Below, piece after piece: positions 11,912 to 15,338 of a stretch of 64,000 nt of DNA (within the stretch, counting starts at the first letter, position 1; each line of letters begins with the position of its first letter). A program made the translations under genes and the position numbers. Origin of the DNA: Mycobacterium paraseoulense (GTDB lineage Bacteria; Actinomycetota; Actinomycetes; Mycobacteriales; Mycobacteriaceae); assembly GCF_010731655.1 (NCBI RefSeq), contig NZ_AP022619.1:1240001-1304000 (forward strand), read 5' to 3'. The notes under the pieces are model-generated. The model saw nothing but the letters and a program-made list of their open reading frames with translations. It ran no database searches and was not told the DNA's origin.

Positions 11912-11997
11912 GTCCGAGTGGCGGAATGGCAGACGCGCTAGCTTGAGGTGCTAGTGCCCTACTAATGGGCGTGGGGGTTCAAGTCCCCCCTCGGACA
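11912..11997 (+). tRNA. tRNA-Leu (anticodon GAG)
   Basis: A class II tRNA of 86 nt with acceptor stem GTCCGAG/CTCGGAC, discriminator A, D-arm GGCGGAATGGCAGACGC, anticodon stem CTAGC/GCTAG at 11938-11942 and 11950-11954, and loop TTGAGGT giving anticodon GAG at 11945-11947. There is a long variable arm (TGCCCTACTAATGGGCG) and T-arm GGGGGTTCAAGTCCCCC. The 3' CCA is not encoded. It reads CUC and CUU Leu codons. Beside it M. tuberculosis carries the parDE2 toxin-antitoxin genes; here the SpoIIE/B12/STAS operon occupies that place. Confidence 0.97.
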
Positions 11998-12196
11998 CGC
12001 GTGGTGCAGGCCCGCTTCCCGCCTCGAGAGGCGGCTCTGCCGAAGTCCATGCGACGGGGTCGAGAAGTGGCTCCTCCGCTGCTCTTTCGACGCGCGGCCA
12101 CCCCGGCCGCGGCGCGAACGAACCTCTCCCCCAACCCACTCCGCGTACAGTCGGGGTATCAGCCGAAACCGGATTCTCCGTTGACAGGTCAACCGC

Positions 12197-13858
12197 ATGC
12201 ATGATGGTGCCCACGTAGGCGTCGAGAGTGACCTTGACGCCTTGTGGGCGGCGGTGCCGTGCCCCACGCTGCTCCTCGATCGCGAGGGGATCGTGCGGGC
12301 ACTGAGCGGGTCGGCCGAATCGCTGTTGCCCGGCGCGCTGCAGGGCGCCCGGATCGACGAGTCGGTCGATTGGCTGTGGCGGGCCCACGATCGTCTCGTC
12401 CACATCGCGCCCGATTCGGTCAACCGGGACGCGTCCGTCGCCTCGGGAAGCGTGGGCGGCCGCAAATTCGACGCCCACGCCGCGGTGCTGCCCAGCGGCG
12501 AGGTGGCGTGGTCGCTGGTCGAGGACACCGGCCAGCTGTTGCGCGACGCGCAGGAAGCGCTCGCGCGGGAGCAGCAGCGCGCGGCGATCCTGCTGGAAAC
12601 GTCGTCGGTGTTGACGGCGTCGCTGAACGTGGACCGCTGCCGGGAGGCGACCGTTCAGATGGCCGCCCGGCACCTGGCCGACGCGGCGGCGCTGGTGGCG
12701 CCCACGGGCCGCGGGCGGCGGCTGCCGGTGTTCTACAGCGGCGCAGCCGGCGTGGTGGAGCAGTCCAGTGTCGACGCCGACCCCGCGGACATCGCGGGGC
12801 TGAGCGAGGCGCTACACGGATTCCCGCCCGTCTCCTCCGGCTGGATCGACCCGGTGACGGTACCGGACTGGCTTGTCCCACACCATTTCTCGGGCGCCGT
12901 CGGGTCCGTGATGATCCTGGCGCTGCCGGGCCACGGCGTCTCAGCGGGGGCGCTGGTGTTGCTGCGACGCGCCGATCGCCCGGTCTACAGCGCTGACGAT
13001 GAGCTTTTCGCCGGGTTGTTCGCCGCCCGGGCCGGGGCAGCGCTGTCCGCCGCACGGCTCTACGCCGAGCAGGCCGCCATCACCCGCACGCTGATGCGTG
13101 ACCTGCTACCTCCGCCGCTGCACGGGTTGCACGGCATCGAATTCGCCGGCGGATACCGGGCATCGAAGGACTACGAGGTCGTCGGAGGCGACTTCTACGA
13201 CTTTCATCCCGCCGCGCGCCCCGAAGACGAGACGCTGGTGGTGCTGGGCGACGTGTGCGGGAAGGGGTTAGAGGCCGCCGTGATGACCGGCAAGATCCGC
13301 AACACGCTGCAGGCCCTGACCCCGCTGGCGCAGGACCACGAGGGTGTGCTCACGCTGCTCAACCGCGCCATGTTGTCGTCGGACCACACGCGGTTCGCCA
13401 CGTTGGTCCTGGCCTCGGTCGCGCACCGGGACGGGCAGGTGGCGCTGCGGCTGACCTGCGCCGGGCATCCGCCCCCGCTGATCGTGCGCGACAACGGGCA
13501 GGTGGAAGAGGCCGACACCAAGGGCACCCTGGTCGGCGCCCTGGAGCGCATCACCGTGCAGTCTTTCGAGACCTCCCTCGCGCCGGGCGAAACCTGCCTG
13601 CTGTACACCGATGGGATCACCGAGGCGCGCGGCGGTCCCTACGGCGACGACTTCTTCGGTGAGCAGCGGCTGGCGGCCTCGCTCACCGGATGTGCCGGGC
13701 TCCCGGCCGAAGCGGTCGTCGAACGCGTCCTGATGCTGGCCGCGCAATGGGTGGGGCAGCGCGTGCACGACGACATCGCGGTGGTGGCCATCACCGCCCC
13801 GCAGCGGACCCACCTCAGCGCCGTCGACGGCCACACCCGGGGCAGGTACGTGGCATGA
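12197..13858 (+). CDS. PAS-GAF-PP2C (SpoIIE-type) serine phosphatase
   Basis: 553 residues, no membrane segments. The N-terminal 110 residues look like a PAS domain (PTLLLDREGIVRALSGSAESL), followed by a helical linker (AQEALAREQQRAAILLETSS), a GAF-like domain at about 130-300, and a PP2C/SpoIIE domain at about 330-540. All Asp metal-site motifs of PP2C are present: VVGGDFYDF, LGDVCGKG, LYTDGITEA and HDDIAVVAI. Such RsbU/RsbP-like enzymes dephosphorylate STAS anti-anti-sigma factors, thereby releasing a sigma factor. The 3' end overlaps the B12-binding gene as ATGA, and that gene overlaps the STAS gene, so sensor, phosphatase and target are coupled. A 12-bp inverted repeat, TTGAC-AG-GTCAA, lies 5-16 nt before the ATG. 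The gene is absent from M. tuberculosis at this site. Confidence 0.92.
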   Translation: MHDGAHVGVESDLDALWAAVPCPTLLLDREGIVRALSGSAESLLPGALQGARIDESVDWLWRAHDRLVHIAPDSVNRDASVASGSVGGRKFDAHAAVLPSGEVAWSLVEDTGQLLRDAQEALAREQQRAAILLETSSVLTASLNVDRCREATVQMAARHLADAAALVAPTGRGRRLPVFYSGAAGVVEQSSVDADPADIAGLSEALHGFPPVSSGWIDPVTVPDWLVPHHFSGAVGSVMILALPGHGVSAGALVLLRRADRPVYSADDELFAGLFAARAGAALSAARLYAEQAAITRTLMRDLLPPPLHGLHGIEFAGGYRASKDYEVVGGDFYDFHPAARPEDETLVVLGDVCGKGLEAAVMTGKIRNTLQALTPLAQDHEGVLTLLNRAMLSSDHTRFATLVLASVAHRDGQVALRLTCAGHPPPLIVRDNGQVEEADTKGTLVGALERITVQSFETSLAPGETCLLYTDGITEARGGPYGDDFFGEQRLAASLTGCAGLPAEAVVERVLMLAAQWVGQRVHDDIAVVAITAPQRTHLSAVDGHTRGRYVA

Positions 13859-14955
13859 GGCCCCACGACACCGACATGGCTGCGTCCCAGGCCACCGGCG
13901 CCGACGAACTCGTTGTCCGCGAACGGCTTTGGGGCGCCCTGGCCGACCGCGACGAGTACGCGGCGGCGGCCACGGTGTTCGCCGCGATGGATGCGGGCAT
14001 GACGCCGGAGGACGTGCTGCTGCAGGTGATCGCCCCCGTCCAGCACAAGGTCGGCACCGAGTGGGCCGCCAACCGCATCAGCGTCGCGCAGGAACACGCG
14101 GCGACCGCCATCAACGATCGCGTCATCGCCGCGCTGGCCCATCACCCCGCCGGCAAAGTCCAGGGCGGCGGCGGTCGAGTCACTTTGGCCTGCGTGGACG
14201 GCGAGTGGCACGCTTTGCCCGCCCGGCTGCTGGCCGAGGTTCTGCGGTTGCGCGGCTGGCAGGTCGACTTCCTGGGGGCGCAGGTCCCGACCCCGCACCT
14301 GATCGCCCACGTGCACCAGCACGGCCCCGACGTCGTGGCGCTCTCCTGCTCGATTCCCACCCGGCTGCCCAACGCGCACGCCGCGATCGTCGCGTGCCAG
14401 TCCGCCGGGTTCCCGGTCCTGGCCGGCGGCGCGGCCTTCGGCCGCGACGGCCGCTTCGCCCGCAGGCTCGGCGCCGACGCCTGGGCCCCCGACGCCCGCA
14501 CCGCCCACGAACGACTGACTCGCGGATTCCCCGCCGTCCGGCGCATTCCCAACCGCCAGCCGGTCGATGACTTGCCGCACCTGGTCGACCAGGAATTCAC
14601 CATGGTGAGCCGGAGCGCGGCGCAACTGGTCAAGACCACCGTCGCCGATTTGGAGGACCGCTTTCCCGCCATGCGCGCCTACTCCACGCAGCAGCACCAG
14701 CGCACCGTCGAAGACATCGCCCACATCGTGGACTTCCTCACCGTGAGCCTGTATACCGACGACGACGCGTTGTTCACCGACTTCATCACCTGGACCGCCG
14801 ACATCCTCACCGCGCGCGGCGTTCCGGCGGCGTCGCTTCACCCGGCGCTGGATTTGCTGGCGGTGCAACTCAAGGAGTTTCCCCGCAGCCTGCGTCTACT
14901 GCGAGCAGCAAACGATGCCCTCACCACCGTCGCAGAGCCTGGAGCGTCGGCATGA
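13855..14955 (+). CDS. Cobalamin-binding protein with CarH-like photoreceptor signature
   Basis: 366 residues, soluble. Residues about 20-100 form the four-helix cap (B12-binding_2). They contain W70, nine residues, then E80-H81, the Wx9EH pattern that in CarH/LitR photoreceptors contacts the adenosyl group. Residues about 105-215 are the B12-binding Rossmann domain, with E117-W-H119-A-L-P122 in place of the (E/D)xHxxG lower-ligand motif (Gly changed to Pro), then SCSIPTRLPN and VLAGGAAF. Residues about 240-360 are all-helical and may be an output or partner-binding domain of unknown family. There is no MerR DNA-binding domain. The start ATG overlaps the phosphatase stop (ATGA), and the stop overlaps the STAS start (ATGA). 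Inference: an AdoCbl- or light-responsive regulator of the phosphatase/STAS switch. Confidence 0.88.
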   Translation: MRPHDTDMAASQATGADELVVRERLWGALADRDEYAAAATVFAAMDAGMTPEDVLLQVIAPVQHKVGTEWAANRISVAQEHAATAINDRVIAALAHHPAGKVQGGGGRVTLACVDGEWHALPARLLAEVLRLRGWQVDFLGAQVPTPHLIAHVHQHGPDVVALSCSIPTRLPNAHAAIVACQSAGFPVLAGGAAFGRDGRFARRLGADAWAPDARTAHERLTRGFPAVRRIPNRQPVDDLPHLVDQEFTMVSRSAAQLVKTTVADLEDRFPAMRAYSTQQHQRTVEDIAHIVDFLTVSLYTDDDALFTDFITWTADILTARGVPAASLHPALDLLAVQLKEFPRSLRLLRAANDALTTVAEPGASA

Positions 14956-15338
14956 ACCTCTCCCTGAACGTCGCCACGACGGGGCCGTCGGCCCGCCTGC
15001 AGATCTCCGGCGACCTGGTGTACGAAACCGTGGACGCCATGGTCGCCGCCGTCGGTCGGCTGCTCAGCCAACGACCGGCCCCGGCGCACCTTCATCTCGA
15101 CCTCTCCGGGCTGGCGTTCTGCGACTCCGCCGGCCTGTCCGGCCTGCTCCTCGTCCATCGCCAGAGCTCTCAGGCGGGCGTGCGCCTGCACCTGGACCAT
15201 CGGCCGCTATTCCTTGACCGCATCCTGGACGTCACCGGCACGTTCGACCACCTCGTCGCCGCGTCCGACCCCGAGTCGGGCACGTCGAGCGCGGACCGGC
15301 GCGGCGAGAACGCTCCGGGACAGACGCGGGTTCGCTGA
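14952..15338 (+). CDS. STAS domain anti-anti-sigma factor
   Basis: 128 residues, of which about 100 are a STAS domain: LQISGDLVYETVDAM, then HLHLDLSGLAFCDSAGLSGLL. Ser59 in DSAG is the position phosphorylated in SpoIIAA/RsbV proteins. It is followed by QSSQAGVRLHLDHRP and FDHL. The C-terminal 25 residues are polar and probably disordered. In the classic partner switch the unphosphorylated STAS protein captures an anti-sigma kinase. The PP2C protein two genes upstream would reactivate it. No RsbW-type kinase gene is in this window, so the kinase must be elsewhere. ATGA overlap with the cobalamin-binding gene. Confidence 0.93.
   Translation: MNLSLNVATTGPSARLQISGDLVYETVDAMVAAVGRLLSQRPAPAHLHLDLSGLAFCDSAGLSGLLLVHRQSSQAGVRLHLDHRPLFLDRILDVTGTFDHLVAASDPESGTSSADRRGENAPGQTRVR

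What the first reader, a model, noticed from the sequence alone, without database searches (positions are those of the whole stretch)
12197..15338. Candidate cobalamin/light-gated partner-switching operon
Three overlapping genes (ATGA junctions) encode a PAS-GAF-PP2C phosphatase, a cobalamin-binding protein with the Wx9EH photoreceptor signature, and a STAS anti-anti-sigma factor. I know of B12 photoreceptors acting through DNA binding (CarH/LitR) or anti-repressor action (AerR), and of PP2C/STAS switches driven by redox or energy sensors. Here the B12 domain is placed between the phosphatase and its likely substrate. This would couple AdoCbl level or light to sigma-factor release.
Basis: partly seen in the sequence, partly recalled or inferred. 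Interest (0 to 1): 0.88.

Follow-up and report, generated by a model that had tools for sequence, protein, structure and literature searches.

The report
Photocobilin light switch for sigma factors
This is a three-gene operon in a Mycobacterium that looks like a light sensor built on vitamin B12 and a bile pigment, wired to a phosphatase and the protein it probably dephosphorylates; the sensor family is already known, but how this version works and where its pigment comes from are open and testable.

Summary
In detail: three + strand genes with two ATGA overlaps encode a SpoIIE/PP2C phosphatase (12197-13858), a B12 protein (13855-14955) and a STAS protein (14952-15338). Zhang et al. 2024 already suggested STAS, SpoIIE and PP2C partners for SasPcob, so this is a new member of a known kind. 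New here: PP2C lies just upstream in 79 of 80 named loci and STAS just downstream in 67; eight of nine Nocardia loci have STAS-kinase-PP2C-photocobilin; two loci also hold a sigma factor in line. This supports a light- or AdoCbl-gated partner switch. A second mycobacterial lineage keeps the cobalamin residues but lost the biliverdin Asp and His; this lineage keeps them, even in genomes without canonical heme oxygenase such as this one, so a noncanonical bilin (perhaps the MhuD product) is a testable guess. The phosphatase has a conserved C-terminal tail. No kinase or SigB/F/G-type gene lies nearby, so the target is inferred.

The parts
11912..11998 (+). tRNA-Leu(gag); the operon sits between it and the phosphoribosyltransferase gene, a place that is empty in two relatives read
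   Evidence: gap of about 120-170 bases without operon in L224 and L226
12197..13858 (+). PP2C/SpoIIE-type serine phosphatase, 553 aa, with N-terminal sensor-like part
   Evidence: metal-binding Asp residues kept in 79-80 of 80 aligned sequences, the window's own included
12230..12526 (+). PAS-like region (residues 12-110), weakly supported
   Evidence: model secondary structure, Foldseek phytochrome rows with low TM; no Pfam hit
12629..13051 (+). GAF-like region (residues 145-285), weakly supported; its last helix (266-303) runs on as a linker into the PP2C domain
13097..13801 (+). PP2C catalytic domain (residues 301-535), nearest solved fold Rv1364c RsbU domain
13811..13855 (+). conserved C-terminal tail HLSAVDGHTRGRYVA, probably disordered, candidate docking motif
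   Evidence: like tail in 65 of 79 named loci, 45 of 49 genus loci, 8 of 31 class-wide loci, 0 of 20 in the second lineage; third codon positions vary
13855..14955 (+). photocobilin, 366 aa (P0001)
   Evidence: 8j2w/8j2x E 8e-85 over residues 22-352; Foldseek 8j2w E 2.6e-25, TM 0.82/0.90
13915..14136 (+). B12-binding_2 four-helix cap (residues 21-94) with W70, E80, H81
14173..14499 (+). B12-binding Rossmann domain (residues 107-215) with lower-ligand H119 and H148
14575..14910 (+). photoglobin (bilin-binding globin, residues 241-352) with D287 and W313
   Evidence: no Pfam family assigned
14952..15338 (+). STAS anti-anti-sigma-like protein, 128 aa, candidate phospho-acceptor S59 at 15126-15128
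   Evidence: Ser in 65 of 68 aligned STAS sequences, the window's own included

Best explanation
A photocobilin-gated partner-switching module. In the dark, AdoCbl bound between the four-helix cap and the Rossmann domain holds the photocobilin in its dark (dimeric) state. Green light, or red light gathered by a bilin in the C-terminal globin, breaks the Co-C bond and changes the oligomer and surface of the photocobilin. The changed photocobilin acts by protein contact on the co-translated PP2C, probably on its sensor/linker part, and raises (or lowers) its activity. The PP2C dephosphorylates Ser59 of the STAS protein, which then captures an RsbW-type kinase/anti-sigma encoded elsewhere and frees a SigB/F/G-type sigma factor. 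Shown: gene order, domains, kept cofactor and catalytic residues, and related operons with kinase and sigma factor. Inferred: cofactor binding, the photochemistry of this protein, the contact with PP2C, the sign of the effect, the STAS substrate, and the identity of kinase and sigma factor.
For: Full-length match to SasPcob; the seven SasPcob residues mapped (W61, E71, H72, H108, H137, D270, W296) fall on the same residue types here (W70, E80, H81, H119, H148, D287, W313) and are kept in 80-81 of 81 aligned sequences, the window's own included, and in 49 of 49 genus orthologues. PP2C metal Asps and STAS Ser are kept. The upstream gene ends in ATGA or GTGA, a possible 4-base overlap, in 68 of 79 (PP2C) and 67 of 80 (photocobilin) named loci against 150 of 612 other ORFs in the same loci. 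PP2C is just upstream even in the 32-42% identical second lineage, 20 of 20 read, and in 31 of 40 loci outside the genus. Same-strand kinase in 8 of 9 Nocardia loci; kinase plus sigma in L081 and L203. Published precedent: the light state of a photocobilin raises a diguanylate cyclase more than 10-fold and photocobilins can act on it in trans (PMC10979010).
Against: No kinase or SigB/F/G-type gene lies near the operon in this genome, and a kinase is in the operon in 0 of 49 genus loci. No conserved SigF-type promoter in the mycobacterial relatives aligned. Nine of 40 loci read outside the genus have no PP2C next to the photocobilin. No interaction or light response has been measured. The photocobilin could act on the STAS protein or a kinase instead of PP2C; the sign cannot be read from sequence (SasPcob with AdoCbl alone gave the opposite sign to the holo form).
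Confidence: 0.62

Rival explanations
1. The module senses AdoCbl supply, not light. Binding of AdoCbl versus the empty state sets the photocobilin-PP2C contact; light is incidental.
For: In AbDPcob, AdoCbl binding alone lowers output below the apo form. The second mycobacterial lineage keeps the cobalamin contacts but not the biliverdin Asp/His.
Against: W70 and E80-H81, the residues that contact the photolabile adenosyl group, are kept in 80-81 of 81. In this operon's lineage D287, H148 and W313 of the bilin site are kept in 49 of 49, which a pure AdoCbl gauge would not need.
Confidence: 0.2
2. Light-gated partner switch whose final target is not a sigma factor: the STAS protein controls another enzyme or a kinase-like protein. 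(It shares all but the last step with the best explanation, so the odds overlap and do not add up to one.)
For: No SigB/F/G-type gene or kinase near the operon; 0 of 49 genus loci have an in-operon kinase; STAS proteins have other targets (recalled).
Against: Sigma factor on the same strand in L081 and L203 with STAS and kinase; Nocardia operons carry STAS plus kinase; PP2C fold is nearest the RsbU domain of Rv1364c.
Confidence: 0.25
3. Redox or oxygen sensor: the corrinoid or bilin reports redox state, as proposed for some AerR-like proteins.
For: The title of PMC10734443 in the listing ties an AerR-like protein to redox state; the PAS/GAF-like parts of the PP2C could add a redox input (inference).
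Against: Closest solved relatives are photocobilins with measured light responses; adenosyl-contact residues kept.
Confidence: 0.08
4. Metabolic corrinoid protein (methyltransferase partner), as some source names say ('methanogenic corrinoid protein MtbC1').
For: JGI source names; hits to corrinoid-protein models.
Against: The NCBIfam scores listed are all far below their cut-offs; C-terminal photoglobin; the partner gene is a PP2C in 79 of 80 named loci.
Confidence: 0.02

Closest known systems
Photocobilins SasPcob (Saccharothrix syringae) and AbDPcob (PMC10979010; PDB 8J2W, 8J2X, 8J2Y)
   Same: Same B12 four-helix plus Rossmann plus C-terminal globin, full length; the seven SasPcob residues mapped are all kept; SasPcob is stand-alone like this one and was proposed to interact with STAS, SpoIIE and PP2C proteins.
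   Different: 47% identity to SasPcob; this genome shows no PF01126 heme oxygenase; in that paper an enzyme output is measured for a diguanylate cyclase, not for a PP2C/STAS pair.
Photoglobin family (Schneider et al. 2022, not held; title and citations seen, content recalled)
   Same: C-terminal globin next to a B12 domain; signalling neighbours predicted there (recalled).
   Different: The kept bilin-site Asp in this lineage versus its loss in the second mycobacterial lineage comes from our own alignment; whether that paper covers it was not checked.
RsbU-RsbV-RsbW-SigB type partner switch (Bacillus; Rv1364c in M. tuberculosis)
   Same: PP2C of the RsbU fold with linker helix, STAS protein with D-S motif.
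   Different: The input partner is a photocobilin; kinase and sigma are not in the operon here.
CarH/LitR B12 photoreceptors
   Same: AdoCbl pocket with W-x9-EH.
   Different: No MerR-type DNA-binding domain found; 58.3 bits against an NCBIfam cut-off of 400 for CarH.
YtvA (LOV-STAS) blue-light input to the Bacillus stressosome (recalled; listing only)
   Same: Light feeding a STAS/partner-switch pathway.
   Different: Flavin LOV chromophore fused to STAS, not a separate cobalamin/bilin protein beside a PP2C.

Membership tests
Photocobilin | B12-binding_2 plus B12-binding domains | tested here: met
   Pfam E 4.1e-15 and 6.7e-19, both over cut-off
Photocobilin | adenosyl-contact W and EH, and ExH lower ligand | tested here: met
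   W70, E80, H81, H119 map on SasPcob W61, E71, H72, H108, with E117 before H119; kept in 80-81 of 81
Photocobilin | C-terminal bilin-binding globin with D270 and W296 equivalents | tested here: met
   phmmer covers residues 22-352; Foldseek 8j2w TM 0.82/0.90; D287, W313
Photocobilin | binds AdoCbl and biliverdin, changes on green and red light | not testable with these tools
   needs purified protein
RsbU/V/W partner-switching module (compared; a full module is not claimed here) | PP2C with metal-binding Asp residues | tested here: met
RsbU/V/W partner-switching module (compared; a full module is not claimed here) | STAS protein with phospho-acceptor Ser | tested here: met
   Pfam STAS_2 over cut-off; Ser in 65 of 68; NCBIfam TIGR00377 below cut-off; phosphorylation itself not tested
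RsbU/V/W partner-switching module (compared; a full module is not claimed here) | HATPase_c_2 kinase/anti-sigma encoded with it | tested here: not met
   nearest of 15 over-cut-off genes in the genome is about 259 kb away; present in 8 of 9 Nocardia loci
RsbU/V/W partner-switching module (compared; a full module is not claimed here) | cognate sigma factor identified | tested here: inconclusive
   two SigB/F/G-type genes over cut-off, one directly behind an RsbW-like gene; none near the operon; sigma in line in L081 and L203
CarH/LitR | MerR-type DNA-binding domain | tested here: not met
   no such Pfam hit at E up to 1; CarH model 58.3 bits, cut-off 400

The most novel reading that the evidence does not exclude
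Mycobacteria see light through this operon. The photocobilin's globin carries a noncanonical bilin, such as the mycobilin made by MhuD, because most genomes of the genus that keep this bilin-site lineage (39 of 57) show no canonical heme oxygenase. Light-driven release of the PP2C/STAS switch frees a SigF-type factor that turns on carotenoid and stress genes. The phosphatase's conserved C-terminal tail is the docking peptide of the complex.
Probability: 0.1. Interest if true: 0.85.

Novelty: new member of a known kind. Interest (0 to 1): 0.52.

Why it matters
The output of stand-alone photocobilins is called less clear in the paper that described them, and the sensor behind light-induced pigment in mycobacteria is not named in the passages read here: PMC6739363 gives a MarR regulator, CrtR, whose ligand is unknown, and PMC7755587 holds no 'photoreceptor'. 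A compact, conserved operon with the sensor, the phosphatase and its likely substrate lets both questions be tested with three purified proteins. The two mycobacterial lineages, one with the biliverdin residues and one without, make a natural control for what the bilin adds, and the missing heme oxygenase gives a clear question about the pigment.

Tried and rejected
Chance neighbourhood: rejected. CarH-type repressor and metabolic corrinoid protein: rejected. SigF-type promoter: the window has a GGGTA 43 bases before the start codon but no full pattern, and the element is not kept in the 13 close relatives aligned. The loose pattern matched in 17 of the 80 upstream stretches scanned, most of them Streptomyces and one Mycobacterium (L020); five Streptomyces matches look alike; no chance level was computed and L001's upstream stretch was cut. 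Canonical heme oxygenase as partner: not enriched, 18 of 57 genomes with the operon's lineage versus 82 of 240 others, p 0.76; fewer in genomes with only the second lineage, 3 of 33 versus 97 of 264, p 0.001; no correction for kinship. Only PF01126 was sought, not other heme-oxygenase kinds. Carotenoid link: lycopene cyclase domain in 42 of 57 versus 119 of 240, odds ratio 2.8, p 0.001, no correction for kinship, so weak; not so for the second lineage alone, 17 of 33. Photochromogenicity by species names: M. vaccae (L020) and M. phlei (P0119) carry it and are listed as photochromogens in PMC6739363, but M. scrofulaceum (L007), a scotochromogen in PMC7755587, carries it too; the lists are cut (best 80 of 248 and best 120 of 2550), so absence in M. 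kansasii, M. marinum and others could not be tested. The second fold look was filled by the PP2C domain and did not test the PAS/GAF part.

Tail versus kinase: in the 110 named and class-wide loci with PP2C the tail is in 4 of 21 loci with a nearby same-strand kinase and 69 of 89 without, and in 70 of 81 with STAS downstream versus 3 of 29 without; related species are not independent, so this is only a lead. The tail pattern was chosen after looking at the sequences and misses degenerate tails (such as that of L028).
Full report
What is there. Three + strand genes overlap by ATGA at both junctions. Gene 1 (553 aa) ends in a SpoIIE/PP2C domain (residues 343-533, E 9e-44). Gene 2 (366 aa) has B12-binding_2 (21-94) and B12-binding (107-215). 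Gene 3 (128 aa) is a STAS protein. A tRNA-Leu lies upstream and a phosphoribosyltransferase gene downstream. The genome is one contig of 6.09 Mb, completeness 100; close named relatives of gene 2 are from Mycobacterium species such as M. nebraskense and Mycobacterium sp. 4858, 90% identical.

Gene 2 is a photocobilin. Against solved structures it matches SasPcob (8j2w, 8j2x) at E 8e-85 over residues 22-352, then AbDPcob (8j2y) at 1.5e-40; other cobalamin proteins follow at 5e-13 or weaker, CarH-type entries among them. The AlphaFold model (pLDDT 87.1, pTM 0.82) finds 8j2w first (E 2.6e-25, TM 0.82/0.90). Counting along the alignment gives 153 identities in 323 columns, and of the twelve numbering offsets tried only one puts W61, E71, H72, H108, H137, D270 and W296 of SasPcob on the right residue types; it pairs them with W70, E80, H81, H119, H148, D287 and W313 here. 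In the paper (abstract, the results section and its section 9 read; supplements not seen) these are the adenosyl-stacking Trp, the EH motif, the lower axial His, a His that bridges to biliverdin across the dimer, the key biliverdin Asp and a Trp of the globin that touches both pigments. So the part of gene 2 that Pfam leaves blank is the bilin globin.

Gene order elsewhere. The scan of named genomes kept the best 80 of 248 relatives. PP2C is just upstream on the same strand in 79 of 80 (L048 is cut by its contig end; in a few loci, such as L082, it is in more than one frame) and STAS just downstream in 67 of 80. The upstream gene ends in ATGA or GTGA, a possible 4-base overlap, in 68 of 79 (PP2C) and 67 of 80 (photocobilin), and in genus loci in 44 of 49 and 48 of 49, against 150 of 612 other ORFs in the named loci. 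Of 297 genomes of the genus, 90 have a photocobilin at E up to 1e-30: by identity, 57 carry this operon's lineage and 33 only a second lineage (32-42% identical), while 12 of the 57 carry both. I read 49 of the 57 with surroundings (besides the own genome, seven were not read; three of those are split or cut): PP2C-photocobilin-STAS in 49 of 49. Nineteen of the 49 have a photocobilin identical to one of the named loci, so the two sets overlap. In the second lineage I read 20 of 45 genomes: PP2C just upstream in 20 of 20, no STAS downstream; in L141 (checked with Pfam) and L134 a divergent STAS and kinase pair lies next door.

Kinase and sigma factor in related operons. In Nocardia (9 loci) a STAS gene lies upstream in 9 and a HATPase kinase between it and PP2C in 8 (Pfam check of L058). 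Streptomyces diastatochromogenes L081 has PP2C-photocobilin-STAS-kinase-STAS-sigma on one strand. Across the class, the genus included, 47 of 296 genomes hit; I read 40 of the 44 matches outside the genus: PP2C just upstream in 31 of 40, and in those 31 a same-strand kinase close by in 9. L203 has kinase-sigma-STAS-kinase-PP2C-photocobilin-STAS on one strand (sigma, both STAS and the second kinase checked with Pfam). L180 has a same-strand sigma-like stretch at the edge of what I read, about 3 kb before its PP2C, not adjacent. L057 and L062 have a sigma factor nearby on the other strand. So sigma factors in line are few, and most loci have no kinase beside them (12 of 79 named loci do).

This genome. 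No kinase or SigB/F/G-type gene is near: of 15 HATPase_c_2 genes over cut-off the nearest is about 259 kb away; SigB/F/G-type genes over cut-off lie at 739342 and 5249418, the second directly behind an RsbW-like gene. Other sigma classes were not sought. SigF deletion costs M. smegmatis its carotenoid pigment (PMC4694148, start of abstract in the listing; PMC7755587 passages). That this operon feeds SigF is inference.

The bilin. The own genome has no match to canonical heme oxygenase PF01126 (controls ring in 3 of 14); other kinds of heme oxygenase were not sought, apart from the following. It has an MhuD-like enzyme, 195 bits to the solved M. tuberculosis protein; such genes are in 293 of 297 genomes. 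MhuD makes mycobilins by chemistry unlike that of canonical heme oxygenases (PMC8801480, start of abstract in the listing). Of the 49 read orthologues 17 come from genomes with PF01126 and 32 from genomes without; D287, H148 and W313 are kept in all 49. In the 20 loci of the second lineage W70, E80, H81 and H119 are kept in 20 of 20 but H148 is Arg in 20, and D287 is Ala, Val or Thr in 19 with one gap. So the biliverdin residues can be lost while the cobalamin site stays, yet this lineage keeps them without canonical heme oxygenase. Either another bilin, perhaps the MhuD product, fills the pocket, or these residues serve the fold or dimer, or an unrecognised enzyme makes biliverdin. AbDPcob, with His at the Asp position, still binds some biliverdin, so loss of the Asp does not prove loss of binding. 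The ten genomes with the closest orthologues all have PF01126, which makes the own genome an exception among its nearest kin and speaks for plain biliverdin in them.

A conserved tail. PP2C ends in HLSAVDGHTRGRYVA. A like tail is in 65 of 79 named loci, 45 of 49 genus loci and 8 of 31 class-wide loci; it is absent in 20 of 20 of the second lineage (short ends there) and in 8 of 9 Nocardia loci. The model gives residues 538-553 a confidence below 50, as for a disordered end. Most conserved codons vary in their third base, so the constraint is on the protein. The tail goes with STAS downstream (70 of 81 versus 3 of 29) and against a nearby kinase (4 of 21 versus 69 of 89), without correction for kinship and with a pattern chosen after looking. 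A docking peptide for STAS or photocobilin is a guess.

Mobility. Relatives L224 and L226 have tRNA-Leu and the phosphoribosyltransferase gene about 120-170 bases apart with no operon between, and other mycobacteria carry the operon among different neighbours by a rough grouping of ORFs. The operon therefore looks like a cassette that moves as a unit.

How it most likely works. Light or AdoCbl state changes the photocobilin, which acts on the co-translated PP2C; PP2C sets the phosphorylation of the STAS protein; STAS sets a distant kinase and sigma factor. The sensor chemistry has precedent; every link after it is inferred from gene order and residues.

Novelty. Photocobilins and their suspected STAS/SpoIIE/PP2C partners are in print. 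The 2022 photoglobin paper could not be read. My searches for photocobilin (3 papers), photoglobin (5, one on an M. tuberculosis transcription factor that I did not open), B12-dependent photoreceptor with mycobacteria (9) and three wider term sets (20 of 32 papers listed) showed, in their listings and in the passages I read, no work on a mycobacterial photocobilin; papers outside that library were not searched. I rate it a new member of a known kind, with the bilin question and the phosphatase tail as the fresh parts.

Noticed in passing
window:13811-13855: Conserved 15-residue C-terminal tail of the phosphatase (HLSAVDGHTxGRYTA-like), probably disordered, absent in the second lineage and in 8 of 9 Nocardia loci; candidate docking motif.
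   Followed up: partly
L133-L152: Second mycobacterial photocobilin lineage paired with a PP2C that keeps the cobalamin contacts but has lost the biliverdin Asp (to A/V/T) and the bridging His (to R).
   Followed up: partly
L141:5063-8930: Photocobilin-PP2C operon with a divergent STAS-kinase-STAS operon next to it.
   Followed up: partly
window:11912-15382: The operon fills a place between tRNA-Leu and the phosphoribosyltransferase gene that is empty in L224 and L226; elsewhere in the genus it has other neighbours.
   Followed up: partly
G000:C1:3677000-3681300 (L091): A cluster in the own genome with a protein that looks RsbR-like by eye (STAS end) beside HATPase kinases, like a stressosome; possible further input to the same sigma network (not tested with Pfam).
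   Followed up: no
L188 and L189: Two photocobilin genes in tandem behind one PP2C and before one STAS gene.
   Followed up: no
upstream of PP2C in L028, L031, L036, L045, L050: A look-alike stretch GTTGCC...GGGGGAAG about 100-150 bases before the start in five Streptomyces loci; possible promoter element.
   Followed up: no
window:8328-9707: Protein of 459 aa that looks like the HNH-containing 13E12 repeat family (recalled, not tested).
   Followed up: no
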